64,000 bases of DNA from Streptococcus suis (lineage in GTDB: Bacteria; Bacillota; Bacilli; Lactobacillales; Streptococcaceae). Position 1 is the stretch's first letter, and each line of letters starts with the position of its first letter. Below, one piece after another: positions 43,545 through 64,000 of this stretch. Location of the stretch: assembly GCA_002831545.1 (NCBI GenBank), contig CP025095.1, forward strand, positions 1,922,001-1,986,000, written 5' to 3'. The translations under genes were made by a program, and so were the position numbers. Under the pieces are notes generated by a model that was not told the origin of the DNA, ran no database searches, and worked only from the letters and a program-made list of their open reading frames with translations.

Positions 43545-44294
43545 TTATACTCTCAATAAAATGTTAAAGGTTTCTCGTCCTTTAGGTGTTACGAGGGTCT
43601 GTGTACCTTTCCAAGCTGTACTTTCGTTCTTGGTTTCTTTGATTTCAAAGAGTCCGTCATTTTTGTTGGCAAATGGTACAAGTTTCCCTTTCTTGTCTCG
43701 GTACAGAAACTTCTTGTCCAGTAACCAATTAATGAACTCACGCTCTTTGATTTTTAGCATTTTAGCTGTATCTCGGAAACTTGTCAGCAAATTTCTGGCA
43801 ACTAGATCATCAAAATACTGGGCCTTTGGTTGCATAATCTGGTTGTCAACCATTAGTTGACTATTCGCTACTTGAAGCTGCTTACGTGCTTCTCTTTCTT
43901 CTTTCAGTTGAGTTGCTAACGATATGAGCGTATCTGGATTAAGCAACGCTTCCTCTAGCTTGTTATCTGTCAGATAGCCACCGTGCTTCCGAATACTTGG
44001 CAAGACTTCTGATGTGACCCAGCGTTTGAACTGCTTGGCTTGTGGTAACTTAGATTTCAAGATAAGCGAGTATAGACCGCTCTCGTTGATGATAACTTGG
44101 TCTTGACTTCCTCCAAGGGTGTCGCGTTTTGCGACCCCCTTATCTTCTTCATCAACATGCTTACTCAATGCATCACGAGAATTTTTATATCCCAAAATCT
44201 CCGCAATCTCTTTTCCGACGAACCAAGGCTCATTGTTGATTTCCACAAGTTGCACTTGTCCAAACTTCTCATTCTTAAAAATTTGTAGTTCCAT
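43545..44294 (-). CDS. Phage antirepressor, Bro-N plus KilA-C type (left module)
   Basis: 249 residues. The N-terminal Bro-N domain (WFVGKEIAEILGYKNSRDALSKHVDEEDKGVAKRDT...SGLYSLILKSKLPQAKQFKRWVTSEVLPSIRKHG, about 10-110) is followed by a coiled linker and a C-terminal DNA-binding KilA-C/ANT domain (AKMLKIKEREFINWLLDKKFLYRDKKGKLVPF). Such proteins inactivate repressors or act directly on DNA. Last gene of the RHH-sRNA-ORF-antirepressor module. It starts MELQIFKNEKFG after GAAAGGAAACTAAT, the same start context as the right-hand antirepressor. Confidence 0.88.
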   Translation of the reverse strand: MELQIFKNEKFGQVQLVEINNEPWFVGKEIAEILGYKNSRDALSKHVDEEDKGVAKRDTLGGSQDQVIINESGLYSLILKSKLPQAKQFKRWVTSEVLPSIRKHGGYLTDNKLEEALLNPDTLISLATQLKEEREARKQLQVANSQLMVDNQIMQPKAQYFDDLVARNLLTSFRDTAKMLKIKEREFINWLLDKKFLYRDKKGKLVPFANKNDGLFEIKETKNESTAWKGTQTLVTPKGRETFNILLRV

Positions 44295-44295: not shown

Positions 44296-44544
44296 TTAGT
44301 TTCCTTTCATTGCATTTTCGATAATTGTTCTATGTTCAGCCTCTAAGCTGTCTAAACGGTGCATAATTAAATTCAGTAAAGCAAAATGTGAGCCATGAGC
44401 CACAATAATATCGTAATAAGTTTCTGGCTTGTCGAATTTCGGTTCTCGCGACAACCAGTTATGAATAATATTTAAACTCTCACGAATTTCAGCAGTAAAA
44501 TTCAACAAATCTTCGTACTCACTTAAAACATCAATTTTTGCCAT
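44296..44544 (-). CDS. Small phage protein in the left antirepressor module
   Basis: 82 residues, acidic, mostly helical (MAKIDVLSEYEDLLNFTAEIRE...), not recognised. AAAGGAG lies 8 bases before the ATG. The 76 bp from its start codon upstream (44542-44617) are identical to those before the 75-residue ORF of the right module, although the two proteins are unrelated in sequence. It ends 1 bp before the antirepressor start. Confidence 0.7.
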   Translation of the reverse strand: MAKIDVLSEYEDLLNFTAEIRESLNIIHNWLSREPKFDKPETYYDIIVAHGSHFALLNLIMHRLDSLEAEHRTIIENAMKGN

Positions 44545-44563
44545 AATAAAAACTCCTTTGGGT

Positions 44564-44592
44564 ATGACAAAGAAGCTCGTTTCTGATATAAT
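44564..44592 (+). promoter_or_regulatory. Plus-strand promoter of the left antisense sRNA
   Basis: ATGACA (44564-44569), a 17-bp spacer and TATAAT (44587-44592) point against the prophage transcripts. The sequence is identical in the right module (61500-61528). Confidence 0.75.
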
Positions 44593-44598
44593 GATTTC

Positions 44599-44670
44599 AG
44601 AAAGAGTTTCTTTCGAGGGATAACGTATAACTGCAATCTTGGCGGAGAGGAGTTATGCGTTATTTGTTTT
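44599..44670 (+). ncRNA. Predicted antisense sRNA, left module (sar-like)
   Basis: About 72 nt, antisense to the junction between the RHH gene and the small ORF. A 5' hairpin GAAAGA/TCTTTC is followed by a terminator: ATAACGTATAACT (44620-44632) pairs over 13 bp with AGTTATGCGTTAT (44651-44663) using one U-G pair, then TTTGTTTTC. The 18-nt loop has TTGGCG in the middle, which includes a YUNR motif (UUGG) of the kind that speeds antisense pairing. The U-G pair is allowed only in plus-strand RNA. The RHH stop codon (44660-44662) is inside the terminator arm. Confidence 0.65.
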
Positions 44671-44839
44671 CTTCCAGACCTAAAACTAACTTTATGCCTT
44701 TTCTGACCACCTCGGTACGAGTGGTCTTTTTTTGTAGACAATAATCTTCCAGTTGTTTATTTAACTCTGTATCAATTCTTGCCTTAACTTCGACATTAAG
44801 TGGTTTTTCACTCTTAGGTCTTCCTGTTCGTGGGCTCAT
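44660..44839 (-). CDS. Ribbon-helix-helix (Arc/CopG-like) repressor, left module
   Basis: 59 residues starting MSPRTGRPKSEKPLNVEV; strand residues VKARIDTEL and helices LNKQLEDYCLQ / TRTEVVRKGIKLVL fit the RHH fold. The start at 44839 follows AGGTGATGAA; a longer frame runs into the promoter. It is likely to repress its own promoter through two TGTGSCACA palindromes. Its stop codon lies inside the antisense sRNA terminator. Confidence 0.82.
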   Translation of the reverse strand: MSPRTGRPKSEKPLNVEVKARIDTELNKQLEDYCLQKKTTRTEVVRKGIKLVLGLEENK

Positions 44840-44898: not shown

Positions 44899-44940
44899 GA
44901 GGTTTTTGAAAAAACTTCAAAATATTATTCAATTTTCAAA

Positions 44941-44967: not shown

Positions 44968-45030
44968 TTAATTATATTTCTCAAAAAGCGCAAAAATGGT
45001 AAAAATGCGAAAAAATTTAAAAATGAAAAT

Positions 45031-46085: not shown

Positions 46086-46087
46086 AC

Positions 46088-46387: not shown

Positions 46388-46398
46388 TAGAATTCCTC

Positions 46399-46740: not shown

Positions 46741-46742
46741 GA

Positions 46743-46955
46743 TTATTCTCCTTCGATGATTTCTTCCGCTGGTTTAGTAGCTTCGTCCAGTTGCTTTGTT
46801 AACTCAGTAATTTCTGCCTGCAGACCTGCGATGGTCTGCTGAGCTTCTGTCAACTGGACAGCTAACAAGTTCTTAGTGTTCTTCTCTTCTGCCAATTGGT
46901 TGGCTAGTTCTTGGTTTGTCAAAGCGAGTGCTTGATTCAGTTGTTCTTGGTTCAT
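46743..46955 (-). CDS. Small coiled-coil phage protein
   Basis: 70 residues, almost wholly heptad-like (LNQALALTNQELANQLAEEKNTKNLLAVQLTEAQQTIAGLQAEITELTKQL written here in part: LALTNQELANQLAEEKN and LQAEITELTKQLDEAT). Probably a short accessory of the tail tip or lysis region. Function unknown. Confidence 0.65.
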   Translation of the reverse strand: MNQEQLNQALALTNQELANQLAEEKNTKNLLAVQLTEAQQTIAGLQAEITELTKQLDEATKPAEEIIEGE

Positions 46956-46969
46956 TTAAATATTTCCTC

Positions 46970-51897: not shown

Positions 51898-54263
51898 TAA
51901 ATCCCCTCCCTTGCCATAATCGCACCTTGATGCATATAGCTATTTTGAGCTAATTTTTCACCGTCCAAATAAACTGCCAACTCCTTATCCACCAAGACAG
52001 ACAGGAAGCGCTCAATATTTGCCAAACGAGCACTCAAGCTACTACCTCCATCACTTCCAGCCAAATCGCCAGTAGAAGACAGCAAGTTTCGACGTACATC
52101 CACCGATGCACTTGACGTCATATCATAAGCCAAGGACTGATTTTCAAAAGGCTTAGCAATTGCTCCAGCCATGCCAGATACCGTCCCCATGACATCCTTG
52201 AATCCCACTTGTAAGTTGGTATTTAAGCCTTGCATGATAGCTAGACCAGCAGGTTTCAAAAGTACTCGGTCGTATGAGATAGGACCCTTGTTTTTCGCAA
52301 TCCAATCAGCAATTCCTCCTACGAAACTCTTGACACCCTCCCAAGCAGACTTCAAACCACCCAAGAAGCCATCCATAATCGCTTTACCAGCTCCAGAAAT
52401 ATCGATATTGGCAACTTCCTTGATGGTGGAGACAACCGTATCAATGACCCCATTGACCGCCTTCCCAACACTAGATACAACATCCTGAAAGCTAGTAAAG
52501 GCTGACTTAACACCCTTGATGACACCGTCAATAATGTCCTTAGCAACCTTAATGGCATCTTGAATGCCCATCCAAGCCAAAGAAAAGACATTTTTAAGCA
52601 CATCAACAGCATTTCCAGCTCCAGAAAAAGCCAATTTGATCCAGTCAATGACTGTTCCAATGATATTTCCAGCCGTCTGAATAGCTGATTGAATGTTAGT
52701 CCAAGCCGACTTGATAAAAGCACTCAAACCTTCCCCAGCCGTACCCAGATTACCAAACATACCGATAGCTACACCAATCCATTCAGCAATCGTACTCAGC
52801 ACAGGCTGAACGAAATTCAAAGCCTGTACCAAAAAATCGACCACAGGAGTCAGGAACTCGATAGCCACTTTTAAAGCATCGAAAGCAAATCCGACACCTT
52901 CAAGAGCTCCTTTTACAACACCTCCAAGGAAGGACCCCAGAATTTGCAAGACAGGCATTAAAGCACCGCTCAAAATGGTTATCAAAGGTTGAGCAGCATT
53001 CCACATAGACACGAAGGATTGAACGACTGAGTCAATGGCAGGGCTGACAATGCTCATGAAGGTCTGGAAGCCAGCTTGTAGAGCTGGTAAAATAGCACTT
53101 ATTAAGGACTGGAAGCCTGAAAAGTCCATCCGAGCAATACCGTCCATAATCGTCGTAATCACTGGACCAACAGCCGCACCAATCGCCGAAAAGAAACCAG
53201 GTAATTGCCCAAAAGCCGTCTGTAGCCCTGCTATGACAGGCTGAAATGCCGTCAAAATCCCTTGAAATTTTGAAGTAATAGGGGTTAAATCAACACTCAT
53301 TCCAAGACTCGAAAACAAACCCTGAAACTGTTGAGCAACCAAAGGACTAGCCTCAGCGATAAACGTTCCAATCGCAGTTGGCAAACCCTTGAATACATTC
53401 CCAACCATCGGAATAAAGTTTCCGAATAAAAAATTAGACGTTGTCGACGCTAAGGCTTGTAATTGTGGCGTGATATTCTCGCCCAAAGATAAGCCTGCAA
53501 GTGTGTTAGCCCAACTTGCCTTCATTGCAGCAAGCGAACCCGTGTAGGTATTCTCAGCCTCTGCAGCTGCTACACCTGTCAATCCCATACTTTCCTGGAC
53601 AAGGTGGATAGCCTCTACCACATCCGCATAGTTACTGATATCAAACTTGCGCCCCATAGCAGACGGCAAGCCCTCAGCAGTCGTCAACAAACGTTCCATT
53701 TCAGCCTTTGTGCCACCAAAACCAAGCTTCAGGTTATCCAGCATGGCATAGTTGCCACGGGCTAAACTTTGATAGGTCTGTTGGATGATACCGATATCGG
53801 TACCCATTTTAGCCGCATTGTCCGTCATGTCCATGATAGCCACGTTTGCCATGTTGATGGCCTTGGTCGAATCACCACCAAGAGCCTGTTTCAGGCTAGC
53901 CCCCATGGATACAGCTTGCTCTGCGTAGGTGTTTGCCGATATTCCAGCCTTGTAGGCCTCTTTTGCAAACTGCTTAGCAGACTCTTGAGCACCATCATAG
54001 ATAGTATCCAGACCACCAAAAGATTGTTGCAAATCAGCACCAGCACTCAAAGCAGAACCAATGATTTTTCCAATCCCTGCTGCTGCAAGTGCTCCACTTA
54101 AAGCAGAGACGAGCGAGGCACCGAGACTTGAGCCAGCAGATCTACCTGCACTCTCAACTTCACCACCCAATAATTTCGAAATCGACCCGCTAATGCCTTT
54201 TGCAGACGGGACTATCTGCACATAAGCAGAACCTAAATCAGTCGCCACGCTCCTCACCTCCAA
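51897..54263 (-). CDS. Tape measure protein
   Basis: 788 residues, alanine/glycine-rich, with hydrophobic helices (SALSGALAAAGIGKIIGSAL, LGSFLGGVVKGALEGVGFAF) and repeated GAL/amphipathic segments; the N-terminal GSAYVQIVPSAKGISGSISK is a common siphovirus tape-measure start. Its length sets the tail length. Shorter than many, so the tail would be short if built. Confidence 0.9.
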   Translation of the reverse strand: MEVRSVATDLGSAYVQIVPSAKGISGSISKLLGGEVESAGRSAGSSLGASLVSALSGALAAAGIGKIIGSALSAGADLQQSFGGLDTIYDGAQESAKQFAKEAYKAGISANTYAEQAVSMGASLKQALGGDSTKAINMANVAIMDMTDNAAKMGTDIGIIQQTYQSLARGNYAMLDNLKLGFGGTKAEMERLLTTAEGLPSAMGRKFDISNYADVVEAIHLVQESMGLTGVAAAEAENTYTGSLAAMKASWANTLAGLSLGENITPQLQALASTTSNFLFGNFIPMVGNVFKGLPTAIGTFIAEASPLVAQQFQGLFSSLGMSVDLTPITSKFQGILTAFQPVIAGLQTAFGQLPGFFSAIGAAVGPVITTIMDGIARMDFSGFQSLISAILPALQAGFQTFMSIVSPAIDSVVQSFVSMWNAAQPLITILSGALMPVLQILGSFLGGVVKGALEGVGFAFDALKVAIEFLTPVVDFLVQALNFVQPVLSTIAEWIGVAIGMFGNLGTAGEGLSAFIKSAWTNIQSAIQTAGNIIGTVIDWIKLAFSGAGNAVDVLKNVFSLAWMGIQDAIKVAKDIIDGVIKGVKSAFTSFQDVVSSVGKAVNGVIDTVVSTIKEVANIDISGAGKAIMDGFLGGLKSAWEGVKSFVGGIADWIAKNKGPISYDRVLLKPAGLAIMQGLNTNLQVGFKDVMGTVSGMAGAIAKPFENQSLAYDMTSSASVDVRRNLLSSTGDLAGSDGGSSLSARLANIERFLSVLVDKELAVYLDGEKLAQNSYMHQGAIMAREGI

Positions 54264-54621
54264 TCTCTATTTCTAGCGCACGCATAGCACGTTCAAACTC
54301 CTCACCAGAAGAAAAGACACGTTCCTCACGTTCCACTTTCGACCCTTCCAAGGCTTGAGCAACAGAGTTTGGACGATTCCGTCCAGCCTGTCCATCCTTA
54401 GTTTTAGCCCAAAAGAGCAAACGAACCGTATCATAGATACCTGCAAGCAGCAGAGTATCCAAGTCTTCTTTCTGACCAGACAAGACCTTCTTAATCCGTG
54501 ATTTTTCACTTAACCCGCAAGCAAAAACAGCTACCCGCAAAACAGGTAGCTGTCGATAATCATATATGCCATAGGTTTCAGCCAAATCACAGACAAGAGC
54601 ATCCTCATCTGCCGAAATCAT
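54238..54621 (-). CDS. Tail assembly protein (DUF5361-like)
   Basis: 127 residues (MISADEDALVCDLAETYGIYDYRQLPVLRVAVFACGL in part). It lies between the tail assembly chaperone and the tape measure and overlaps the latter by 26 bp. Phages often express such a gene as the frameshift extension of the chaperone; here it has its own Met and a 4-bp overlap. The family match is by memory. Confidence 0.7.
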   Translation of the reverse strand: MISADEDALVCDLAETYGIYDYRQLPVLRVAVFACGLSEKSRIKKVLSGQKEDLDTLLLAGIYDTVRLLFWAKTKDGQAGRNRPNSVAQALEGSKVEREERVFSSGEEFERAMRALEIEIGGEERGD

Positions 54622-54896
54622 TCTGGCGAGGATTGCGAGTTTTTTAAGTCTTTGACTTGTTCAAAGACATCCTTGATTTCAGCACCAAGAGCAGAAATAG
54701 GCACCAGCCCTTTTTCTGTACGGACATGGTCCTTGAGTTTCTTCGCTTCGTCACCGAGTAACAAATTGACAATCCGAATCATGGCACTGCTGTCTCCAGA
54801 TTCTTCAGCAGCGATTGCCTCAAAAAGCTCATAGTTTTCCAAACGGTCTTGGTCAATGCTAATCACAAGACCTGTACTGGTTTTTACTTCAAACAT
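54618..54896 (-). CDS. Tail assembly chaperone
   Basis: 92 residues, acidic, helical (FEVKTSTGLVISIDQDRLENYELFEAIAAEESGD). Placed directly after the major tail protein as tail chaperones are. A 4-bp overlap joins it to the next gene. Confidence 0.75.
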   Translation of the reverse strand: MFEVKTSTGLVISIDQDRLENYELFEAIAAEESGDSSAMIRIVNLLLGDEAKKLKDHVRTEKGLVPISALGAEIKDVFEQVKDLKNSQSSPE

Positions 54897-54906
54897 TTAA
54901 ACCTCC

Positions 54907-55494
54907 TTACGATGACGACGGCGAGCTTGTTCCTGTCGATTCGCTAGCTCCCTTAATGTACTCATAGTGTGTATTGCCTTTGCTATCTGGCAGAGCTTGG
55001 ATAGTTGTTTCATAACCAGCCAAGTCACTGTCGGCGTAGGTAATCTCCCCAACTTCCAGCACCTTAGCATTTGGGATGACAATCCGCTTCTTAGCACCAT
55101 TTTTCAGCAGCATATCCACTACCAATGGATGCGTAGGCAATTCCTTAGAGTTGACCTCCACAGTAATCCCTGATTCAAGGTCGCCTTTCACATTTTCAGG
55201 ACCATAGACCTCTTTTAAGACATCCACATTTAACACCTCAATGAGTTTGTAGGTAAATTTGTCTGATTTTCCTGTTTGAGGAGTATCAACCACATCACCG
55301 CCCCAGGCTTTCAGTTCTTCCGATTCACGAGTGTCCTCGTTGGTCAAGCCATCCTCTGAAATGTAGCCTAAGTTTTTAAAAGCCGTATTTAGCTTAGTAG
55401 TCGCATTGGTCGGCAAGCTCGTTCCAGTTGGAGCTGAGGAAATCGCCCCAGCAATATCAGGCTTTGCCGATGACACAAGTTTTGCATCTGCCAT
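54907..55494 (-). CDS. Major tail protein
   Basis: 195 residues, the tail tube subunit: KLVSSAKPDIAGAISSAPTGTSLPTN, NTAFKNLGYISEDGLTNE, KLIEVLNVDVLKEVYGPENV. Beta-rich. Ends in a Ser/Thr-rich tail. Typical of phi13-like major tail proteins. Confidence 0.88.
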   Translation of the reverse strand: MADAKLVSSAKPDIAGAISSAPTGTSLPTNATTKLNTAFKNLGYISEDGLTNEDTRESEELKAWGGDVVDTPQTGKSDKFTYKLIEVLNVDVLKEVYGPENVKGDLESGITVEVNSKELPTHPLVVDMLLKNGAKKRIVIPNAKVLEVGEITYADSDLAGYETTIQALPDSKGNTHYEYIKGASESTGTSSPSSS

Positions 55495-55507
55495 GTAAAT
55501 TCTCCTT

Positions 55508-55843
55508 TTAAAAATAAATAAAATCCACCACCGCTTGATAGCGATAGCGTTTGGTTTCCGTATCTGTAAAATTATAGTCCGAGTTGAGTTCTACCTTACT
55601 GATACTCGGTAGCCCAATCATCTTTTCAACCACCGTTTTGACCTCTTCATTCAAAAAGGCAGCCTCTTCCAAAGACTGCCCATAAGATTGTATCGCCAAA
55701 GTCGCTTGATTCAGATGGTTCTTCTTGCCACCGCTCGTCTTTTCAAAAATCACAAAACACTCAGGCATTTCCTCCTGATGTTCCGTATAGACAGGCACAG
55801 AAAGATGCTCGGTTAAAAAGTTCAACATGATGACTTCAATCAT
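55508..55843 (-). CDS. Tail completion / minor tail protein
   Basis: 111 residues (MIEVIMLNFLTEHLSVPVY, ECFVIFEKTSGGKKNHLNQA) resembling the tail-terminator-type small proteins next to the major tail gene. An ATG six codons in (MLNFL) is also possible. Overlaps the upstream gene by 4 bp. Confidence 0.72.
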   Translation of the reverse strand: MIEVIMLNFLTEHLSVPVYTEHQEEMPECFVIFEKTSGGKKNHLNQATLAIQSYGQSLEEAAFLNEEVKTVVEKMIGLPSISKVELNSDYNFTDTETKRYRYQAVVDFIYF

Positions 55844-56079
55844 GACTTCACCGCCTTTAACAAGGTATTATGCTTCTTGTTGTCCCGTTTAGCTTGAAAG
55901 CTATTCGCATAGACCATAGCGTTGGCACGAGTCTTACCGACATAGATATCCGATTCATACCCATCGCCTGCACGGTTTCGGATAGCATTTGCCTTGTCAG
56001 TCAAAACTGCCTGCATCTCAGGCGATTTCATCAACTCACGGACACCTGCACGGTTCAACTTAAATTTCATGCTAGCCAT
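55840..56079 (-). CDS. HK97 gp10-like head-tail protein
   Basis: 79 residues from MASMKFKLNRAGVRELMKS; LNRAGVRELMKSPEMQAVL is a common gp10 start. The longer frame from 56112 overlaps the upstream gene without support. A short form of the family. Confidence 0.72.
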   Translation of the reverse strand: MASMKFKLNRAGVRELMKSPEMQAVLTDKANAIRNRAGDGYESDIYVGKTRANAMVYANSFQAKRDNKKHNTLLKAVKS

Positions 56080-56410
56080 ACCGTTCCACCTGCACTTTCT
56101 TATTCCATTCAAGCGGGATCAGATGGTCAAGACCTTCCAGCGGCTCACCAACTGTTCGCCAGCGTTGACCAAAGAAACGCACCTCTCGATTTTCCCATTG
56201 GTTTGTATCCCTTTTGGGAATAGCTAGCGTGTATTCCACTTTCTTTCCTGTCAAATTGATTTGATTGGTAATATCCTCGGTTGTCGCGGGCGCAACCAAG
56301 ACATTCTCAACCACAATCTCCACATCTGCAGTCTTTGGATGACCAAACGAATCCTTGCCAATGATCTGTTTGTCAATCAAGACAATCGGTATACCTTTAA
56401 TCCGTCCCAT
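56072..56410 (-). CDS. Head-tail joining protein
   Basis: 112 residues; the start at 56410 (MGRIKGIPIVLIDKQ) follows GAGGGAT. Beta-rich (VEIVVENVLVAPATTEDI, EVRFFGQRWRTVGEPLEG). Head-closure/stopper-like position between adaptor and gp10. Confidence 0.72.
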   Translation of the reverse strand: MGRIKGIPIVLIDKQIIGKDSFGHPKTADVEIVVENVLVAPATTEDITNQINLTGKKVEYTLAIPKRDTNQWENREVRFFGQRWRTVGEPLEGLDHLIPLEWNKKVQVERYG

Positions 56411-56792
56411 AAATATCCCTCGCTCCAAAACGTTGTTTCTTCAGTCCCAATCGCTTCAGCTCGCTATCTTTGATAAAGAGCCCTCCGCCAGGAACCAAAA
56501 ACGAACCAGACACCGAATAGCCAAGAGCTGACTCGTTAAATTGAGTCATAGGCTCTTGGTCTGTTGATGTCATGAGAGTGCGAGCAACTACATCGACTGT
56601 AACGGATTTGACCACCGAGGCAAACACCGGACTATCAGCAATCATCTCATCCAAATCCTTCCCGACTTTTTGAGCTTCATGACGTATAGAGTTTGACACA
56701 ACTTCAAGTAAGGCTTCTGCCCGCTCCGTTTCGTCAAATTTCAACACCCGCCACAAAGTTTCCAAATCGGATATTGTCGCAAAAGGAGTCAT
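56397..56792 (-). CDS. Head-tail connector / adaptor protein (gp6 type)
   Basis: 131 residues with FATISDLETLWRVLKFDETERAEALLEVVSNSIRHEA (in part), the Gp19/Gp15-type adaptor start. It would attach below the portal, which is missing from this prophage. Confidence 0.75.
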   Translation of the reverse strand: MTPFATISDLETLWRVLKFDETERAEALLEVVSNSIRHEAQKVGKDLDEMIADSPVFASVVKSVTVDVVARTLMTSTDQEPMTQFNESALGYSVSGSFLVPGGGLFIKDSELKRLGLKKQRFGARDIYGTD

Positions 56793-56795
56793 AAG

Positions 56796-57020
56796 CTACT
56801 CCTCTTCATTCAGATTCTGGCTTTCTTGGTAAAGTTGCAACAACTCATCTTTATTCGCTTTCGGATTAAATTCAATCCCCAATTCGGTCAACATCGACTT
56901 CAATTCAGGCACTGTCGGAGTTTTTTGAACATCCTTCTCTTTAACTAGTTCCCAATCGCCTTTTAGTTCGCTATCTGTGACAACAACCGCACCTGTTTCT
57001 TTATGTTTATAAATAGCCAT
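56796..57020 (-). CDS. Small phage protein with C-terminal HeH/SAP-like helix pair
   Basis: 74 residues from MAIYKHKETGAVVVTDSE; the C-terminal VPELKSMLTELGIEFNPKANKDELLQLY resembles a HeH/Rho-N type helix-extended loop-helix. GGAGGTGCCCT precedes the ATG. Located directly after the capsid gene. Confidence 0.75.
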   Translation of the reverse strand: MAIYKHKETGAVVVTDSELKGDWELVKEKDVQKTPTVPELKSMLTELGIEFNPKANKDELLQLYQESQNLNEEE

Positions 57021-57030
57021 AGGGCACCTC

Positions 57031-57930
57031 CTAAGCTTGTTCGACACGAGCAAAGGCAGTTTCATCAAGGATACCCCAACCGATAAACGCCTCTGTACGT
57101 AGCAAAATCTCATTGTAAGCTTTCAAATCACGACCTGAGCCATCTGGATCACCATACTCAATGATTTCCATCGGGATATTTTCAGCATACCCCCACTTAA
57201 ATTTATTTTTAAAGTCGCCCACAATGGCATGGTCAGTCTTGGCAGTACCGCCAGTCACGGTTAGCGTCTTGTTGATGTCAAGGTCCATGTTGAAGAAGTT
57301 ATTTGGTCGCTGACCAAATCGGAATTCTGGGTACATAATACCATCAAATTTATCCTTGATTTTAGACATAGCCTGACCTGCAACTGGTGACATGGCAATG
57401 CCAGTCACTTCGTTTCCGTTAATAACAATAGTTTGAACAGCTGCATCAATGTTGTCATCAATTTTATCTGCACTATAGGTAATAACATTCCCTGTAATTA
57501 CACCATCAAAAGAATTCGTTGCTTTAAATGATGCATCTGTTAAAGATTTTGGCTCAAGGCCATGGAGAGCTGCGATGTCAAAAGCCTCTGCCATCTTTTT
57601 AGCAAATCCATCGGCATAGTGTTTCAAGAAGTCCAACTGCTTCTCTTCTGATGCGTATTTAAATTCATCAGTCAAACGAGCTTGATAAACAAATTTAAGT
57701 GGCTTGATTACTTTTGATGTGACCGTAGCTGAACCAGCTCCCTTTAAGTCCCCTTCACCTACAATCTGTGCATTGCCATCCAGATTGAAAATAAATTGCT
57801 CAGTACCATTAAACGGAATTGGTTTTTGAGTAGATAGCTTAGCAAGAGTCGAATGACCTTGAACCTTTGACATAATTTCTTTTACTAATTCTGGTTCAAA
57901 AAGTGTTCCAGCTTTCATAGATGTTGACAT
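57031..57930 (-). CDS. Major capsid protein
   Basis: 299 residues, HK97 fold: GTLFEPELVKEIMSKVQGHSTLAKLS, GDLKGAGSATVTSKVIKPLKF, FGQRPNNFFNMDLDINKTLTVTGG. Preceded by the scaffold gene as usual. Confidence 0.9.
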   Translation of the reverse strand: MSTSMKAGTLFEPELVKEIMSKVQGHSTLAKLSTQKPIPFNGTEQFIFNLDGNAQIVGEGDLKGAGSATVTSKVIKPLKFVYQARLTDEFKYASEEKQLDFLKHYADGFAKKMAEAFDIAALHGLEPKSLTDASFKATNSFDGVITGNVITYSADKIDDNIDAAVQTIVINGNEVTGIAMSPVAGQAMSKIKDKFDGIMYPEFRFGQRPNNFFNMDLDINKTLTVTGGTAKTDHAIVGDFKNKFKWGYAENIPMEIIEYGDPDGSGRDLKAYNEILLRTEAFIGWGILDETAFARVEQA

Positions 57931-57933
57931 ATA

Positions 57934-58392
57934 TTATTCTCCTTTATTTAAATCTTTTATAACGTGACGCCATGCAGCATCTTCACCTTTTACTTCTGGC
58001 TCAATACTTTTAAGTGGTGGAATTGGAGCTTGTGGTTTCATGAGACTTGCAAAGCGTTCCGCATCTGCCGTCAGGCTTGCTTCATCTTCACCTTGCAAAC
58101 GATCAGCAAATTCAATAGGCAAGCCATATTTAAGAGCAATAGCCGTCTTCGTTTTCGCAGTTTCATAATCTGCAATGGTTGACTTATACCCTTCAATTTG
58201 GCTTTCAAAATCAGCTGCAGTCTGATTTGATTGTGCGACCGTTTCTTTGAGACCAGCATTCTCCGCTTCCAATGTTGAAACACGGGATTTCAGTTCGTCG
58301 TAGTCAGCATACTGCTCTTTCAGACGCCCCAAACGAGCCTTGATAATCGTATCTAGCTCTTCCTGTGTTTCGATAACTTTAAATTCAGACAT
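57934..58392 (-). CDS. Capsid scaffolding protein (DUF4355-like)
   Basis: 152 residues from MSEFKVIETQEELDTIIKAR, with a central coiled coil and a C-terminal PPLKSIEPEVKGEDAAWR. GAAAGGAGACATTGAT sets the start at 58392. An in-frame extension upstream (GRPVFFNAKNITERTGNA) overlaps the terminase end and may be a scrap of a lost gene. Confidence 0.85.
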   Translation of the reverse strand: MSEFKVIETQEELDTIIKARLGRLKEQYADYDELKSRVSTLEAENAGLKETVAQSNQTAADFESQIEGYKSTIADYETAKTKTAIALKYGLPIEFADRLQGEDEASLTADAERFASLMKPQAPIPPLKSIEPEVKGEDAAWRHVIKDLNKGE

Positions 58393-58471
58393 ATCAATGT
58401 CTCCTTTCTCCGCATTTCCCGTGCGTTCGGTAATATTTTTTGCATTAAAAAAGACAGGTCGCCCCGTCCAC

Positions 58472-59884
58472 TTAATACCTAATTTGTTGCTTTTTCTTAG
58501 GCTTGGTTGTAGCACAAGCCCAATGCGCCAGCAAAGCACTGTCCATTAAACTAATATCCATATCGTCAAAGTGTGAGCGATAGCCAAAACCACCATTTGA
58601 GCCAATGTTCCGCTTATCGCAGTTGGTAACGACCTTGGCTAGTGACGGTTGCCCATTGTGACAAATCGTGTGCTGGTAGATACCCTGCTCCCACATAGAG
58701 TTAGCAATGATGATTTCCTTGACGGTTGGCAAGATGACATTGCGGATTTTAGAGTCTTTCAACTCCTCCTCCAGCATCTTCTGGCCACTAGCTCCGTCAA
58801 TGACGATTTGAGCCACATCAGCCTGCTTCAAAAAGGCGACCAGCCAGGCACTACCATTCCGCACAGATTGACAGTCAATTGTCTCAATAAAGAATTGACC
58901 GTCTTTAGTTCGTACTGCGATTGACAAGGCTACGTTGGTGCCGTCCTGCCCAAACTTGATGCCAGCAAATAGCTTGCCAGTCAGCTTCGGCATATCGTCA
59001 ATCTTGAGTGCGTTCCACTCAGTCTCAGATATAGCTGATTTCTGGTTGTAAGTCGGCCAGAAACCCAAACGCTGTACATTATGGTCTAACTTGTCTTCGC
59101 CAAGCTCAGCCTCAATCTTCCTCTCGTTGAGATGATAGCCCATGGACGGATTAGAGTTGTACCATGCTGCTACATCGTCAATCTCTTTCTCTTGGTCCAC
59201 AGACCATTCAGCCCAACCTGAATACTTCCCCTTGCCAAACAGACAAGTCTCACGATACTTGGTAAATACCGTACCGCTTGAAACGGGTGTCGGAGGAGTT
59301 CCACACATGATTGTCATCGGATTGTCCGAATCCGTCACAGTGTACTTAAGAGCAGATTCCTGCTCCGTGGTGTATTCCTGGGCTTCGTCAATGATAAGCA
59401 GGTCAAATCCCTCACCAAGACCGCCAGTCCCTGTCCGAGTACGGAACTGGACCACACCGCCTGTCTCATAGAGTTCGATTCTTTCCTGCCCCTTAGCCCG
59501 AATGGAGTTGAAGTCCTCGCCGTCCACATAACCCATCTTTTCCAGATAACGCTTGACCTTCTCAAAGGACGAGTGCGATGTTGAAATGCGGTGGGCTGTG
59601 TGCAGGATATTGAGACCGTTGTGCAAGCCCCAAATCTCTAGCATATAGAGAATTTCAGATTTACCATTTCGCCGAGGGATAGAGTAGCCAAACTTTTGAT
59701 GCACCCATAGACCATTCTTGTCAACAGCCATGATTGGATTGAGCAAATTGACCTGCCAAGCGTAGCAAGACAGACCTGTTCGCTCATAGAGTTCTATCGC
59801 TTCTTTGGCTTTAGAATTTCGTTTAACGTATTTGAGTATTACCGATTGAGTAGGATTTTGATTGCCAAGCTTCTTTCTTGCCAT
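58472..59884 (-). CDS. Terminase large subunit
   Basis: 470 residues. ATPase Walker A is PRRNGKSE (about 70-77), Walker B FDLLIIDEAQEY (about 163-174), motif C GTPPTP; the C-terminal nuclease includes FAGIKFGQDGTNVALSIA with an acidic residue, IVIDGASG and DDMDISLMDSAL. It packages DNA into heads. Unusually, the next gene is the scaffold, 79 bp on, with no portal or minor head gene between. No terminase small subunit is recognised upstream. Confidence 0.9.
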   Translation of the reverse strand: MARKKLGNQNPTQSVILKYVKRNSKAKEAIELYERTGLSCYAWQVNLLNPIMAVDKNGLWVHQKFGYSIPRRNGKSEILYMLEIWGLHNGLNILHTAHRISTSHSSFEKVKRYLEKMGYVDGEDFNSIRAKGQERIELYETGGVVQFRTRTGTGGLGEGFDLLIIDEAQEYTTEQESALKYTVTDSDNPMTIMCGTPPTPVSSGTVFTKYRETCLFGKGKYSGWAEWSVDQEKEIDDVAAWYNSNPSMGYHLNERKIEAELGEDKLDHNVQRLGFWPTYNQKSAISETEWNALKIDDMPKLTGKLFAGIKFGQDGTNVALSIAVRTKDGQFFIETIDCQSVRNGSAWLVAFLKQADVAQIVIDGASGQKMLEEELKDSKIRNVILPTVKEIIIANSMWEQGIYQHTICHNGQPSLAKVVTNCDKRNIGSNGGFGYRSHFDDMDISLMDSALLAHWACATTKPKKKQQIRY

Positions 59885-59939
59885 ATATCCGTCCTTTCAA
59901 TCGTATCGCATGATAACCCTATCGCTGGGAGAAATTAGA

Positions 59940-60206
59940 TCACCGACCCTTTCTCTTGTACCAAGGTTTCTGCAGTTGCTTAACCTGCTCCTGCAATTCA
60001 GTAATCAAAAGCCCCTGTTGCTCGAACAGCTGATTGATTGACTGGACATTCTTCGAACCGTCTTCCTCGAAACGCTCCATCCGCTGAACAACTTCTTCCA
60101 CAATACCAGCCAAACCGTCAAGACTTGCTGAAGTAGCCAAGGCAAGAGTAGCAACTGCCGCCAACCGCACCTCCTGCTCACGCTTTTTCTTAATACGCTT
60201 ATTCAT
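59940..60206 (-). CDS. Phage hypothetical protein upstream of terminase
   Basis: 88 residues with a basic N-terminus (MNKRIKKKREQEVR), an Ala-rich helix and a coiled coil (VQSINQLFEQQGLLITELQEQ), ending KPWYKRKGR. Sits where a terminase small subunit often lies, but no helix-turn-helix is visible, so that role is not claimed. Confidence 0.6.
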   Translation of the reverse strand: MNKRIKKKREQEVRLAAVATLALATSASLDGLAGIVEEVVQRMERFEEDGSKNVQSINQLFEQQGLLITELQEQVKQLQKPWYKRKGR

Positions 60207-60230
60207 AGCGACCTCCTTTCTAGGTATAAG

Positions 60231-60256
60231 AAAAGCACCCGATTTCTCGAATGCTT
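60231..60256 (-). terminator. Terminator of the right antirepressor module
   Basis: On the minus strand AAGCATTCGA and TCGGGTGCTT form a 10-bp stem with two G-U pairs around GAAA, followed by TTTC. It separates the module from the late genes. Confidence 0.75.
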
Positions 60257-60266
60257 ATCGTTAGAC

Positions 60267-60494
60267 TTAATGACCAATTTCTATTAGTTCAAGGTACGTC
60301 AGGCCAGAAGATTTTTTTAGAGCTTCAATTTTTTCAGACAACAAATCACGTTTCGTTCTAAGATTGAATAGAAAAATCTTATTACTCAACTTTCCCGAAC
60401 GATTTAGGCTCATCAAGTCATCCATTTCCTCGACAAAATCAAGTTTAGCCTTGACAATATCTGCCAATAATGTAGCTTGCTTTTCAGTCATCAC
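60267..60494 (-). CDS. Small phage protein downstream of the right antirepressor
   Basis: 75 residues, helical and charged (MMTEKQATLLADIVKAKLDFVEEMDDLMSLN in part). Not recognised. Follows the antirepressor by 6 bp and is the last gene before the terminator. An internal Met directly after the first is also possible. Confidence 0.65.
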   Translation of the reverse strand: MMTEKQATLLADIVKAKLDFVEEMDDLMSLNRSGKLSNKIFLFNLRTKRDLLSEKIEALKKSSGLTYLELIEIGH

Positions 60495-60500
60495 TTCCTC

Positions 60501-61235
60501 CTACTCCATAAAATCAAAACTCATCTGGCTGTTACAAGCCTGAATTTCCATTTTCAAGTTTGTGGACGGCTCCCAGTTCTTCCAGTAAGCATAGGCAGCC
60601 TCAATCGCCTTTTTCGGTAGCAAGTCATAGCGAGAAACACGGAAATGCTCCTTGAAATCATTCATCGCCTGTTGGAAGACACGTTTTGCTAAAGATTTGT
60701 CCATATAGGCAGGGCTATCCATCCCACCCATACAAGCTACCACACGCTTTTTTCTAGTCTTTTCCAAGTCCAAACGTACATCAGGGTTGATAGGCTGTTC
60801 AGCCTTCAAGTAGTTCAAATCCGCCTCAAATACATCTTGACGCTGACGCATACTCTTCTGAGTTTCCAAGACATAGATAAGTGCATCCTCATTGACCGTT
60901 TCAGGAGAGACAGTATAACCCCCAGTTTTACGAATAGTCTTCAAAATCTCCTTAACCTTTTTCTTGAATTGTTTAGCAATCGGCTTACGTGACTGCATCA
61001 AGACTTCATACAGACCATCTTCGGTCAAAAACCACATTTGACGGTTCTGACCTGATGCGAATAATGTTCGCATCAGCTTCTCGTCTTCATCAATATTGTT
61101 AATCATTTTCTGAGTGTCGGAATGCTCAATCCACTCCGCCACATCTTTTGCCAAAAACAAAGGCTCGTCCGCCGTCCCATAAATCGTAAAGTTCTTCCCC
61201 AGTACTTCCTGTTGATTTATAATTTGTAGTTCCAT
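60501..61235 (-). CDS. Phage antirepressor, Bro-N plus ORF6C type (right module)
   Basis: 244 residues. Bro-N domain (PLFLAKDVAEWIEHSDTQKMINNIDEDEKL...EDGLYEVLMQSRKPIAKQFKKKVKEILKTIRKTGGY, about 20-110) followed by an ORF6C-like C-terminal domain (RVSRYDLLPKKAIEAAYAYWKNW). The C-terminal domain differs from the left antirepressor. The start MELQII at 61235 is preferred because it lies 8 bases after AAAGG and aligns with the left copy; another ATG is two codons upstream. Confidence 0.87.
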   Translation of the reverse strand: MELQIINQQEVLGKNFTIYGTADEPLFLAKDVAEWIEHSDTQKMINNIDEDEKLMRTLFASGQNRQMWFLTEDGLYEVLMQSRKPIAKQFKKKVKEILKTIRKTGGYTVSPETVNEDALIYVLETQKSMRQRQDVFEADLNYLKAEQPINPDVRLDLEKTRKKRVVACMGGMDSPAYMDKSLAKRVFQQAMNDFKEHFRVSRYDLLPKKAIEAAYAYWKNWEPSTNLKMEIQACNSQMSFDFME

Positions 61236-61252
61236 ATTCATTTCCTTTCGTT

Positions 61253-61480
61253 TTAATTGCTTCTTTCTGCTCTGATACCTGCGATTCTTCCCATAACAAA
61301 GACTTGTGCAATAGCATCAATGAGTGATTTTCCTTGTTCCATTGCATGATTTGCCATACAATACAAATCATGTTTTTCCTGTAGTGTTAGGTCGTGAAAT
61401 TCTGAGACCCTATACTCGTCTTGATAACAATCAGCAAAGTTCATTGATTGATACTGTTCGACTTCTTCGTAAATTGACAT
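61253..61480 (-). CDS. Small phage protein in the right antirepressor module
   Basis: 75 residues (MSIYEEVEQYQSMNFADCYQ...), helical, unrelated to the left module's 82-residue protein though both start after the same 76-bp sequence. No family recognised. Confidence 0.7.
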   Translation of the reverse strand: MSIYEEVEQYQSMNFADCYQDEYRVSEFHDLTLQEKHDLYCMANHAMEQGKSLIDAIAQVFVMGRIAGIRAERSN

Positions 61481-61499
61481 AATAAAAACTCCTTTGGGT

Positions 61500-61528
61500 A
61501 TGACAAAGAAGCTCGTTTCTGATATAAT
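61500..61528 (+). promoter_or_regulatory. Plus-strand promoter of the right antisense sRNA
   Basis: ATGACA (61500-61505), 17 bp and TATAAT (61523-61528), identical to the left copy. Confidence 0.75.
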
Positions 61529-61534
61529 GATTTC

Positions 61535-61606
61535 AGAAAGAGTTTCTTTCGAGCGATAAGGTATGACCTACGGTTTGGCGATTGCGGGTTATACCTTATT
61601 TTTTGA
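61535..61606 (+). ncRNA. Predicted antisense sRNA, right module (sar-like)
   Basis: About 70 nt. The same 5' hairpin GAAAGA/TCTTTC as the left copy. The terminator stem is different: TAAGGTATGACC (61557-61568) pairs over 12 bp with GGTTATACCTTA (61587-61598) using one G-U pair, then TTTTTTG. The loop is again exactly 18 nt with TTGGCG at the same position. The RHH stop codon (61596-61598) again lies in the 3' arm. Different stems with kept pairing are covariation evidence for the structure. Confidence 0.65.
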
Positions 61607-61757
61607 TTTCATCATAAATCTTTTGAATACCGTCACGAATGACCTCAGATTTTTTTCTGTTGGTCTTTTTTTCTATGTATTCTAATTGCTCTACGGTCTT
61701 ACTATCAACCCTAGCACGAATGACGGTATCCTTGTTGGATTTTTGATTGTCAGCCAT
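61596..61757 (-). CDS. Ribbon-helix-helix repressor, right module
   Basis: 53 residues: MADNQKSNKDTVIRARVDSK (strand), then TVEQLEYIEKKTNRKKSEVI and RDGIQKIYDEIKK (helices). It is short but preceded by AAGGAGGTGAGACA. Same order and overlap with the sRNA as in the left module. Operators differ from the left pair, so the two repressors probably do not cross-bind. Confidence 0.82.
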   Translation of the reverse strand: MADNQKSNKDTVIRARVDSKTVEQLEYIEKKTNRKKSEVIRDGIQKIYDEIKK

Positions 61758-61774
61758 TGTCTCACCTCCTTGTT

Positions 61775-61820
61775 ATGTGGCTACATTTTTAATTATAGAT
61801 AAATGTAGCTACATTGTCAA
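61775..61820 (-). promoter_or_regulatory. Right module promoter with two RHH operators
   Basis: On the minus strand TTGACA (61815-61820), 17 bp and TATAAT (61792-61797), a consensus promoter. ATGTAGCTACAT (61803-61814) fills the spacer and ATGTGGCTACAT (61775-61786) lies just downstream of the -10; centres are 28 bp apart. Confidence 0.82.
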
Positions 61821-61943
61821 GAGGTTTTTGAAAAAAACTTCAAAATATTATTCAATTTTCAAAGGACAGTGATTGATAGTAACCGCCCAATAACAAGGTA
61901 TATTGAAAAGGTTCCAAAGTCCTGTCGACTCTGGAACCTTTTT

Positions 61944-63456
61944 CTATTTGCACTTTTCTTGAATATTTTCAGCCCATGGTAAATAAGCCTCCAGAACTTC
62001 TTTTTTTGCGAGCGTCTCTTCGTTAGGTAAGTGTTCTAGAAGATAGGTCATATATTTCTCTGCATCAAGACCGTGTCGTTTAGCAGTTTCTAAAAGACTC
62101 AAAATGATAGCTGTCGACTTGGCCCCCTCAAAGCTTTGAGAGAACAGCCAATTTTTACGTCCCATCACCAAGGTCTTCATAGCCCTCTCAGCCATATTGT
62201 TGGACAGGACTAAATCGCCATCCGAGAGAACGGTTCGGAAGGTGGTTTCGTATTTGAGGCTATACTCTATTGCAGTGCCCAATTTGGAACCTGGCAAGAC
62301 AGCCTGATTGCGACACCAATCAAAGAACTCGTCCATCAAGGGAGCCAACTCTGTCTGCCGTTTATGCAGCCGCTCCTCAGTAGACAAGTCAGTCCAGTCA
62401 TTCTCCAAGGCAAACAGGCGGTCGCAATAGGCTAAGCCCTTGGCTCCTAAAGAAGTCTTGTCTGTCTTCTTAGGAGTCGCCTCAAAGAATTTTCTTCTGA
62501 CATGAGCCCAACAGCCAACCAGCTGAGCCTTGTCTAACTGCCGATAGGCTGACCACATGTCACAATGTACATAGCCCGCATAGTCCCCAAGAACTTCCTC
62601 CACAACCAAGCCACTCCGTCGTTTGTCATGATGATAGAGGGTGATGCCCTTTTTCTCATGCTTCCCAGACAAGAAAGTCCAGTAGAAGGTCAACTGGCTA
62701 TCATTTTCTAAGACCTTGTAGGAGGTTTCATCCGCATGGAGAATAGGCTGCTCCAACAATTTCTCGTGCAACAGGTTATAAATCGGTTCGAAATAATACT
62801 GACTAGACTTGATGTGCCAATTGGCTATTTCCTTGCGACTGATGGGCAGACCGAGCTTGTTCCAATCCTCTTCCTGACGGTAATTGGGCACCTTCAGATT
62901 GAACTTCTGGTGAATGGTGTGGGCAATGATAGAGGCTGAACCCAAGCTGTGTGCCAAAGGTGCCTTAGGAATGGGAGCCTTGATAATCTTATCGCTCAGA
63001 TTCTTCTGACTACATGCCTGACACTTGTATGCGTGTTGAACATGGTCAATCCGCTTTAATTGTGCAGGAATGAAGACCAACTCTTGTCGTTGAACAGTTG
63101 AACCAATCTCCTTTAATTGACCATGACAGTCTGGACAGGTACAATCTTCGCCTTGCAATTCGTGATGCACTATCTCTGGAGTGAATTGGCTGAAAATAGC
63201 CTGACGAACTCCCTTAGCTTTCTTGCGTTTATAGGTAATCGTTTCTGTTTCAACTGGGTAAGTCAGCTTCTTCTTCAGGGAGAATTTCCTCCCCAAACAA
63301 GCTCAGCTGACCGGGTTGATACACAACCTTCTCTGATGATTTTCCGTAGAGTTTCTGTCTCAGATACTCAATCTGTTCACGAAGGAGGGTAAGTTCATTA
63401 GCCATCATATCTATCGTTTTTGACTGTGTTTCAATAATTTTTTCTAGTGATGACAT
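61944..63456 (-). pseudogene. IS66 TnpC transposase with a frameshift
   Basis: The N-terminal part (63250-63456, MSSLEKIIETQSKTIDMMAN...LFGEEILPEEEADLP) carries the leucine-zipper region. The rest continues in another frame (from about 63260 to 61944: PVETETITYKRKKAKGVR, zinc motif CTCPDCHGQ and CQAC, DDE core with LHADETSYKV, VHCDMWSAYR and NNMAERAMKTLVMGRKN). Deleting one C near 63262 (TTACCC to TTACC) would give an uninterrupted ADLPVETET. The break would inactivate TnpC unless it is a sequencing error or is bypassed. Confidence 0.8.
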
Positions 63457-63506
63457 AACCAATCTCCTTCTTTTTATCTCATTATACACAAAGAAAAGCC
63501 ATGATT

Positions 63507-63857
63507 TCAATAGAAATCACGACTTTTTGAAAGATTTATTTTTGGATTGATAGAAAATCCTTTCATGAGCCAGTCCACCTGCTCGGAAGTTAGAGCCTTG
63601 ACCTCTTCTTCATTGTTTGGCCAGGTCAATTTTCCATTCTCAAAACGTTTATACAATAACCAAAATCCTTGTCCGTCCCAGTAAAGAGCTTTGAATCGGT
63701 CTTTTCGACCTCCGCAGAAGAGATAGACCTGACCTGAAAAGGGATCCAGATTGAATTGACTTTTGACAAGGTAGGCGAGAGAATCAATCCCTTGACGCAT
63801 GTCCGTTTTACCGCAAACCAAGTAGACTTGACCTAAATCACTGAGTCGGATGGTCAT
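63507..63857 (-). CDS. tnpB: IS66 Orf2 / TnpB accessory protein
   Basis: 116 residues: VYLVCGKTDMRQGIDSLAYLV, FSGQVYLFCGGRKDRFKALYWDGQGFWLLYKRFENG are diagnostic of IS66 TnpB. Required with TnpA and TnpC for transposition. Its start overlaps the tnpA end. Confidence 0.93.
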   Translation of the reverse strand: MTIRLSDLGQVYLVCGKTDMRQGIDSLAYLVKSQFNLDPFSGQVYLFCGGRKDRFKALYWDGQGFWLLYKRFENGKLTWPNNEEEVKALTSEQVDWLMKGFSINPKINLSKSRDFY

Positions 63858-64000
63858 AGTGCAGTACCTTATCCAAGATTGTTTCTAATATTTTTTGGTT
63901 GATAGAGTGAAAGAATGTGACTTCCACTTTTCCGAGACGAATTTTCATCAGAATATCATTTCTGCCTTTCTTCTCAAAGCGGCGAGATAGGGGAATAGTC
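63838..64000 (-). CDS. tnpA: IS66 TnpA, C-terminal part (continues beyond window)
   Basis: The frame is open from the window edge to TGA at 63838-63840: TIPLSRRFEKKGRND, then MKIRLGKVEVTFFHSINQ and ILDKVLHYDHPTQ. The position ahead of tnpB and the short basic sequence fit IS66 TnpA. Overlaps tnpB by 20 bp. Confidence 0.75.
   Translation of the reverse strand, partial: TIPLSRRFEKKGRNDILMKIRLGKVEVTFFHSINQKILETILDKVLHYDHPTQ

What the first reader, a model, noticed from the sequence alone, without database searches (positions are those of the whole stretch)
60231..61820. Twin immI-like modules in one prophage: RHH repressor, antisense sRNA, small ORF, Bro-N antirepressor (with 43508-44898)
Seen: both prophage ends carry the same gene order on the minus strand (RHH, small ORF, antirepressor), each behind a promoter with two palindromic operators, and each with an opposing promoter and terminator between the RHH gene and the small ORF. 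Known: in phage P22 immI, Arc (RHH), the sar antisense RNA from the arc-ant gap, and the antirepressor Ant form the same arrangement. Inferred: these are sar-like switches, two per prophage, with different operators (TGTGCCACA versus ATGTAGCTACAT) and antirepressors of different C-terminal class, so possibly orthogonal. In P22 sar covers the ant start; here the sRNA starts about 40 bp before the ribosome-binding site, so the mechanism may differ (interference or leader refolding).
Basis: partly seen in the sequence, partly recalled or inferred. Interest (0 to 1): 0.85.

Follow-up and report, generated by a model that had tools for sequence, protein, structure and literature searches.

The report
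Plasmid-style RNA brake on phage antirepressors
A dormant virus in a Streptococcus chromosome carries two copies of a small control cassette - a repressor gene plus a predicted tiny antisense RNA, laid out like plasmid copy-number controls - that appears to hold an antirepressor gene switched off, and the same design with ever-changing specificity turns up in other streptococcal viruses, their satellites and a plasmid.

Summary
The anatomy is confirmed. Modules A (60501-61820) and B (43545-44898) each have, on the minus strand, an RHH repressor gene behind a two-operator promoter, a small ORF and a Bro-N antirepressor, and on the plus strand a predicted ~70-nt RNA with its own promoter and terminator. 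Module A is internal to the prophage, not at its end. The RNA is supported by covariation; in 16 of 16 model matches of 37.8 bits or more (8 of them with sequences used to build the model) an RHH gene ends in the RNA's 3' end. The P22 sar comparison holds for circuit logic only: the RNA stops short of the ribosome-binding site. The mRNA leader can form either of two hairpins; the second is terminator-like and in this branch masks the ribosome-binding site. The layout recalls streptococcal plasmid copG-rnaII-repB; module B's RNA weakly resembles pT181 countertranscripts, below threshold. The design also heads operons in three satellite phages fetched. RHH, operator and hairpin vary and recombine. 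Best reading: two-layer silencing of antirepressor cartridges, RHH autorepression plus antisense-induced attenuation. No transcript was measured, and for A and B predicted refolding is weak at equilibrium.

The parts
61775..61820 (-). Module A RHH promoter (TTGACA-17-TATAAT) with two operators, 61803-61814 in the spacer and 61775-61786 downstream of the -10
61596..61757 (-). Module A RHH repressor, 53 aa; stop codon lies in the antisense RNA's T-run
   Evidence: RHH_1 17 bits, below cut-off 20.5; phrog_876 E 4e-10
61500..61528 (+). Module A antisense RNA promoter, ATGACA-17-TATAAT, TG-extended
   Evidence: same frame in 13 of 15 representatives
61535..61604 (+). Module A antisense RNA (predicted start 61535): 5' hairpin, then terminator hairpin with loop UUUGGCG (YUNR) and T-run
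61506..61550 (-). Module A mRNA hairpin U:M (antiterminator / anti-sequestor; approximate ends), encloses the complement of the antisense -10
61486..61514 (-). Module A mRNA hairpin M:S, overlapping and followed by the T5 (61488-61484); contains the Shine-Dalgarno (61489-61494)
61478..61553 (.). 76-bp leader block identical to 44542-44617
61253..61480 (-). Module A small ORF, 75 aa, 11 nt before the antirepressor gene
60501..61241 (-). Module A antirepressor, Bro-N + ORF6C, 246 aa
44856..44898 (-). Module B RHH promoter (TTGACT-17-TATTAT) with operators 44880-44890 and 44856-44864
44660..44839 (-). Module B RHH repressor, 59 aa
   Evidence: (phrog_876 E 4e-15)
44564..44592 (+). Module B antisense RNA promoter
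44599..44669 (+). Module B antisense RNA (predicted start 44599); loop CUUGGCG; RF00242 ctRNA_pT181 at 19.8 bits, below its gathering score 56
44550..44578 (-). Module B mRNA hairpin M:S with T5 (44552-44548), holds the Shine-Dalgarno (44553-44558)
44542..44617 (.). 76-bp leader block identical to 61478-61553
44296..44544 (-). Module B small ORF, 82 aa (phrog_13592), 1 nt before the antirepressor gene
43545..44294 (-). Module B antirepressor, Bro-N + ANT (KilAC), 249 aa

Best explanation
Each module is a self-silencing antirepressor cartridge under two negative controls. (1) The RHH protein represses its own promoter through two operators on either side of the -10, so RHH, small ORF and antirepressor are shut when RHH is present. 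(2) A ~70-nt antisense RNA, read from a promoter inside the mRNA leader, pairs with the leader upstream of the small ORF, probably starting at its UUGGCG loop. Left alone, the nascent leader first folds as U:M. Pairing with U frees M, which folds with S into a terminator-like hairpin that also masks the Shine-Dalgarno, so the mRNA ends early and/or the small ORF is not translated; the antirepressor, 1-11 nt behind it, is not made. Because the RNA acts on transcripts, it could also silence read-through from late promoters, which RHH cannot. In a cell lacking that RHH and RNA (new infection) the module would fire briefly. Shown here: gene order, promoter sequences, hairpin covariation, U:M and M:S complementarity across families, coupling to RHH genes. 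Inferred: the transcripts, the switch, the burst, the antirepressor's targets.
For: Covariation of the RNA helices. A -35 with at least 4 of 6 matches exactly 17 nt from the -10 in 13 of 15 representatives of five leader families; L087 has it at 18 nt, L078 has none (the -10 was what located them). A hairpin of at least 6 pairs at a U-run in 35 of 35 leaders under a strict rule, though L061's is only -2.3 kcal/mol; at least as stable in 0-2 of 60 shuffles for each of 9 representatives; an independent scan lists it in both modules. With strict hairpins, cognate U:M -9.9 against -6.0 kcal/mol across families and M:S -13.8 against -5.3, 0 of 5000 permutations as stable for either. Masking the antisense-bound stretch raises predicted P(M:S) in 34 of 35 leaders (by under 0.01 in L077), e.g. 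0.03 to 0.92 in L056 and 0.00 to 0.97 in L058. In module A the fold formed before S is made must cross 7.4 kcal/mol to reach the M:S fold. An RHH profile of ten proteins matches the ORF ending at the RNA's 3' end in 16 of 16 R1 matches of 37.8 bits or more; 8 of these 16 were not used to build R1, two of those 8 with the same RNA match. Streptococcal phage integrase leaders carry a similarly placed RNA: RF00242 40.9 and RF02589 39.7 bits, both below gathering; one deposited record labels it ctRNA_pT181. RNA-seq found antisense sRNAs upstream of four S. pyogenes prophage integrases (PMC6431027 section 7).
Against: No transcript of either module was measured. For family 1, the window's own, P(M:S) is already 0.79 unbound, and in a longer context P(SD open) does not fall for module A (0.034 to 0.039) though it does for B (0.083 to 0.002); 25 of 27 leaders fall, one of 28 left out for lack of sequence. 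In module B, L073 and L058 the minimum-energy fold at the U-run still holds U:M. M:S in A and B is AU-rich (-9.8 kcal/mol), weak for a terminator. The M:S permutation test is biased because M:S was chosen for stability. RF00242 is far below its cut-off in B (19.8 of 56) and not listed up to E 10 in A.
Confidence: 0.62

Rival explanations
1. Purely post-transcriptional: pairing masks the Shine-Dalgarno through M:S, or exposes the duplex to RNase III; no transcript is terminated.
For: In family 1 and 2 leaders M:S contains the Shine-Dalgarno. pMV158 RNAII acts by inhibiting repB translation (PMC4485353, passages).
Against: M:S lies at a U-run in the leaders examined (34 of 35 with a credible hairpin). 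In family 3 leaders the U-run lies between M:S and a separate Shine-Dalgarno (read by eye), where masking would not apply.
Confidence: 0.2
2. P22 sar-type: the antisense RNA covers the start region of the target gene and blocks ribosomes directly.
For: Same circuit logic: RHH gene, intercistronic antisense RNA, antirepressor.
Against: The RNA's predicted 5' end (61535) is ~40 nt from the Shine-Dalgarno (61489-61494); the aligned relatives keep that distance within a few nt.
Confidence: 0.05
3. Interference: the convergent promoter only obstructs RNA polymerase; the RNA itself is inert.
For: Two opposed promoters with predicted starts ~250 bp apart. In pIP501 convergent transcription does affect antisense output (PMC4981023, passages).
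Against: Covariation of the RNA hairpin, a kept loop motif (UUGGCG in 16 of 24 distinct RNAs) and kept U:M:S complementarity are not needed for interference.
Confidence: 0.08
4. Decayed remnants: the two modules are inactive in this prophage.
For: An IS66 copy splits the upstream block of module A.
Against: RHH, small ORF and antirepressor reading frames are open in both modules, and both promoter pairs match the consensus.
Confidence: 0.05

Closest known systems
copG-rnaII-repB of streptococcal plasmid pMV158 (PMC4485353, passages; PMC5717011, abstract)
   Same: Small autorepressor gene first in the operon; antisense RNA from the following gap, with a terminator hairpin, complementary to mRNA immediately upstream of the next gene's initiation signals. 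CopG is the best natural repressor, though weak, in a PDB profile search with the RHH alignment (E 0.037).
   Different: Payload is an antirepressor, not a replication initiator; RNA has a YUNR loop and a 5' hairpin, whereas RNAII has a single-stranded 5' tail and no U-turn.
pT181 / pIP501 antisense-induced attenuation (Rfam RF00242 ctRNA_pT181; PMC4981023, passages)
   Same: RF00242's model has two hairpins and a UUUGG loop (alignment), as here; alternative leader folds ending in a terminator; pIP501 pairs this with a small repressor protein (CopR).
   Different: Sub-threshold Rfam score in B (19.8 of 56), none listed in A; CopR is a helix-turn-helix protein; target is phage genes.
P22 immI (arc-sar-ant)
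   Same: RHH repressor, intercistronic antisense RNA, antirepressor (PMC11016777 and PMC12197685, passages; RHH fold of Arc recalled).
   Different: Predicted antisense RNA does not reach the start site; no P22-type Ant domain listed; small ORF interposed; no Mnt-like gene seen.
P1/P7 immI (c4-icd-ant)
   Same: Antisense RNA represses Ant synthesis (PMC8546580, passages); small ORF directly before ant (recalled).
   Different: Own opposed promoter here; in P1 the RNA is processed from the same operon's transcript (recalled).
Antisense sRNAs upstream of S. pyogenes prophage integrases (PMC6431027, section 7 read)
   Same: Antisense RNA in front of a phage gene. Streptococcal integrase-leader RNAs L081 and L089, to which R1 gives 27.6 and 27.4 bits, occupy the same position; identity with the paper's four RNAs was not tested.
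   Different: No RHH gene; integrase target.

Membership tests
P22 immI / sar | RHH repressor encoded just upstream | tested here: met
   phrog_876; AlphaFold model pLDDT 80.6, pTM 0.51; Foldseek's best hits include CopG and other RHH domains but none at E 0.001 or better; Pfam RHH_1 17 bits, below cut-off
P22 immI / sar | Antisense RNA overlaps the start of ant | tested here: not met
   Predicted RNAs 61535-61604 / 44599-44669; the nearest Shine-Dalgarno (61489-61494) belongs to the small ORF
P22 immI / sar | P22-type antirepressor protein | tested here: not met
   Bro-N + ORF6C and Bro-N + ANT; no P22_AR domain listed at E 0.1 (that domain name is recalled)
pMV158 CopG-RNAII | RHH gene then antisense RNA complementary to the gap immediately upstream of the next gene's initiation signals | tested here: met
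   by sequence only; description of RNAII
pMV158 CopG-RNAII | Target is a replication initiator | tested here: not met
   Bro-N antirepressors
pT181-type ctRNA (RF00242) | Reaches Rfam gathering score 56 | tested here: not met
   B 19.8 bits at the right place and strand; A not listed up to E 10; a whole-genome search with RF00242 listed three other places, not the modules
pT181/pIP501-type attenuation | Mutually exclusive leader hairpins, the second an intrinsic terminator | tested here: inconclusive
   Predicted and kept across families but weak at equilibrium in A and B
pT181/pIP501-type attenuation | Antisense RNA raises premature termination | not testable with these tools
   Needs transcription assays
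Antisense RNA with U-turn loop | YUNR motif in the recognition loop | tested here: met
   UUGG in the loops of A and B. Of 24 distinct family-1 RNAs, 16 have UUGGCG, 3 UUGGUCG (L015, L030, L031), 1 UUUGCG (L033), and 4 neither (L021, L022, L032, L035)

The most novel reading that the evidence does not exclude
Streptococcal phages, satellites and plasmids share a plasmid-incompatibility-like system turned into viral immunity types: swappable cartridges in which RHH, operators and antisense hairpin diversify and recombine while the promoter frame and leader switch stay fixed. A cartridge is silent in a cell that already holds its type and fires its antirepressor only in a cell that does not, so that phages and satellites test and unseat one another's repressors by type.
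Probability: 0.3. Interest if true: 0.85.

Novelty: new variant of a known kind. Interest (0 to 1): 0.63.

Why it matters
It joins two well-studied kinds of control - small repressors and antisense attenuators of plasmid replication - to phage lysogeny and satellite biology in a genus rich in prophages. If the switch works as drawn, it explains how an antirepressor can be carried safely between late genes, gives a sequence code for which streptococcal phages and satellites should silence or trigger one another, and offers naturally varied RHH-operator and antisense pairs whose cross-talk can be measured directly.

Tried and rejected
Filing under P22 sar: rejected on RNA position and antirepressor family. 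Rfam over 43000-62500 gave nothing relevant up to E 5, and for ten related loci nothing at the cassettes up to E 0.5; only short-stretch scans showed the weak RF00242 match (B 19.8 bits; L086 23.2 bits), while for A 21 unrelated chance matches were listed. R1 matches below 37 bits are mixed: of 14, L077 and L078 have an RHH ORF; L059, L075, L076, L079, L080, L066, L062, L063 and L064 have none and are treated as chance or unknown; L060, L061 and L081 lie before integrases, without RHH. R1 did not find the L084 cassette at E 0.05. Equilibrium folding alone does not prove a switch for A and B. An exact 25-base pattern found nothing in genome contigs; the gapped pattern found 4. L060's leader had no match among phages. 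A first RHH finder was too strict and was replaced by seeds. The ORF list used the wrong strand for minus-strand hits and was redone. The hairpin search credited a later U-run in three family-2 leaders (L072, L073, L057) and one search took an odd hairpin in L086; a strict version was run as and gives the numbers quoted (L086 still takes a long hairpin there). Literature: 10 of 10 searches used on open-licence PMC papers only; no title or abstract listed describes RHH/antisense control of antirepressors in Gram-positive phages. Subscription papers and unlisted hits were not seen.
Full report
What is there. The window lies at 1922001-1986000 of a 2.72-Mb single-contig genome; the named relatives of the cassette are Streptococcus. 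They share an identical 76-bp leader block and a near-identical block upstream of the RHH promoter; between these, operator, RHH gene and terminator hairpin differ. RHH A and B are 25% identical; the small ORFs align with a negative score, and the antirepressors are alike mainly in the Bro-N part. Module A is internal: an IS66 sits in its upstream block and phage genes continue beyond.

The RNA is supported as an evolving structure. In 24 distinct related sequences (A1), the terminator stem is rewritten with compensating changes: 59 both-side changes against 17.0 in shuffles, 0 of 500 as high; covariation score 0.399 against 0.057-0.115 when slid; the shuffle control does not allow for relatedness, the slide does. 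Of the 24 distinct RNAs 16 have a UUGGCG loop, 3 UUGGUCG, 1 UUUGCG, 4 neither. The first 5' hairpin is paired in 98.6% of cells but varies little.

Spread. Family-1 leaders: exact core in 14 viral contigs; a gapped pattern in 19 viral contigs, 4 genome contigs and 7 of 284 genomes of the genus; 9 phage records with the module B query; one 10.8-kb plasmid. A covariance model (R1) matched 21 of 284 genomes of the genus and 11 of 395 of the order, the latter including genus members, at E 0.01. Eight of the 16 carry sequences used to build R1; the other eight (L072, L082, L073, L056, L057, L083, L074, L058) do not, though L072 and L082 have the same RNA match. L077 and L078 also have an RHH ORF; the other 12 do not. 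Further families differ wholly in leader sequence: family 2 in 10 phage records; family 3 in 41 records, 37 of the 40 listed being satellite phages, and in 10 with another query. In the five such regions fetched - satellites L084, L085, L088 and phages L086, L087 - the gene before the leader matches the RHH profile at E 3e-11 or better; R1 found four of the five, not L084.

Payload and place. Modules sit between capsid genes (Javan326, MismyG, Javan336), between terminase and portal (Javan362), before terminase (Javan583; in the window before a gene with a sub-threshold TerL_nuclease match), between genes deposited as hyaluronate lyase and hyaluronidase (Javan119, 190, 197) or behind the lysin (phi30c, Javan549, window B by eye). 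In 28 family-1 loci a Bro-N frame follows in 23 and AntA in one (L018); three stretches end too early (L013, L031, L033) and plasmid L022 has a short frame. One family-2 cassette has a NUMOD4/HNH protein (L082) and one family-3 operon an ERF gene (L074). In the three satellites the cassette stands before an operon whose genes are mostly deposited as hypothetical. Tandem pairs occur in four prophages: L007, L014, L038 (same contig as L019/L083) and L051 (Javan190; Javan192 gave the same hits).

Two diversifying layers. By eye, about a dozen operator types go with RHH types inside one constant frame. RHH and hairpin types recombine: in 28 family-1 loci, type II RHH occurs with four hairpins and hairpin GCTTAGAACC with three RHH types (types are my seeds).

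Mechanism. In each leader the mRNA contains U (pairs with the antisense RNA), M and S; U:M and M:S compete. With strictly defined hairpins both pairings are more stable in cognate than permuted combinations over 15 representatives (U:M -9.9 against -6.0 across families, M:S -13.8 against -5.3; 0 of 5000 each), though M:S was selected for stability. A hairpin of 6 or more pairs at a U-run is found in 35 of 35 leaders, L061's being negligible; shuffles matched its stability in 0-2 of 60 for nine representatives. Blocking the antisense-bound part raises P(M:S) in 34 of 35; L061 goes the other way. The effect is large in family 2 except L072 (0.62 to 0.97), in L074, L058 and L078; nil in L077; small in most of family 1, where kinetics would have to matter: in module A the pre-formed U:M fold must cross 7.4 kcal/mol to reach M:S; in module B the minimum-energy fold at the U-run keeps U:M, so no such barrier was obtained. 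Whether the window's M:S ends transcripts, hides the Shine-Dalgarno, or both, is open.

Comparison. pMV158 RNAII is complementary to mRNA immediately upstream of the repB initiation signals, acts on translation and lacks a U-turn (PMC4485353, passages). pIP501 uses CopR plus RNAIII attenuation (PMC4981023, passages). P22 sar and P1 c4 facts come from passages and recall. Streptococcal integrase leaders carry a similarly placed RNA: the L081 query matched 248 phage records; one record labels it ctRNA_pT181; RF00242 gives 40.9 bits and RF02589 39.7 there, both below gathering, and R1 gives 27.4. RNA-seq in S. pyogenes S119 reported antisense sRNAs upstream of four prophage integrases (PMC6431027, section 7). 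These support the class; they are not evidence that the window's RNAs are made.

Verdict. A genuine, compact branch of plasmid-like RHH-plus-antisense control, with no Rfam match at threshold in the window, set on phage antirepressors: a new variant of a known kind.

Noticed in passing
61879 to genome 1986107 (window 61879-64000 and L028:1-608): IS66-type element with 23-bp inverted ends and GATTGATA on both sides, inserted about 60 bp upstream of the module A promoter.
   Followed up: yes
L028:12080-12805 (minus): A third antirepressor in the same prophage region, AntA + ANT domains.
   Followed up: partly
L007, L014, L038/L083, L051: Tandem cassettes: RHH1-RNA1-very short ORF-RHH2-RNA2-small ORF-antirepressor, the first leader running straight into the second RHH promoter.
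   Followed up: partly
L047 (plasmid NZ_CP118736.1) 9970-10499: The cassette on a 10.8-kb plasmid, where the downstream frame is shorter (80 aa) than the 247-aa Bro-N fusion of its relatives.
   Followed up: no
L082:1333-2418: Cassette with a NUMOD4/HNH protein instead of an antirepressor, among replication-like genes (by eye); three R1 matches lie on this contig.
   Followed up: partly
L089:664-763 and L081:1501-1639: Antisense RNA in integrase leaders of many streptococcal phages; in L089 it matches RF00242 and RF02589 below threshold, so those two Rfam families may belong together.
   Followed up: partly
L084 leader (satellite Javan518): The UUUGGCG loop is on the mRNA strand instead of the antisense strand.
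   Followed up: no
L073:357-419 (minus): GP20-b RNA (RF03003), 52.8 bits, above its cut-off of 36.2.
   Followed up: no
window 42539-43188 (minus): Two ORFs resembling a HicA/HicB pair beside the prophage end (by eye; not searched).
   Followed up: no
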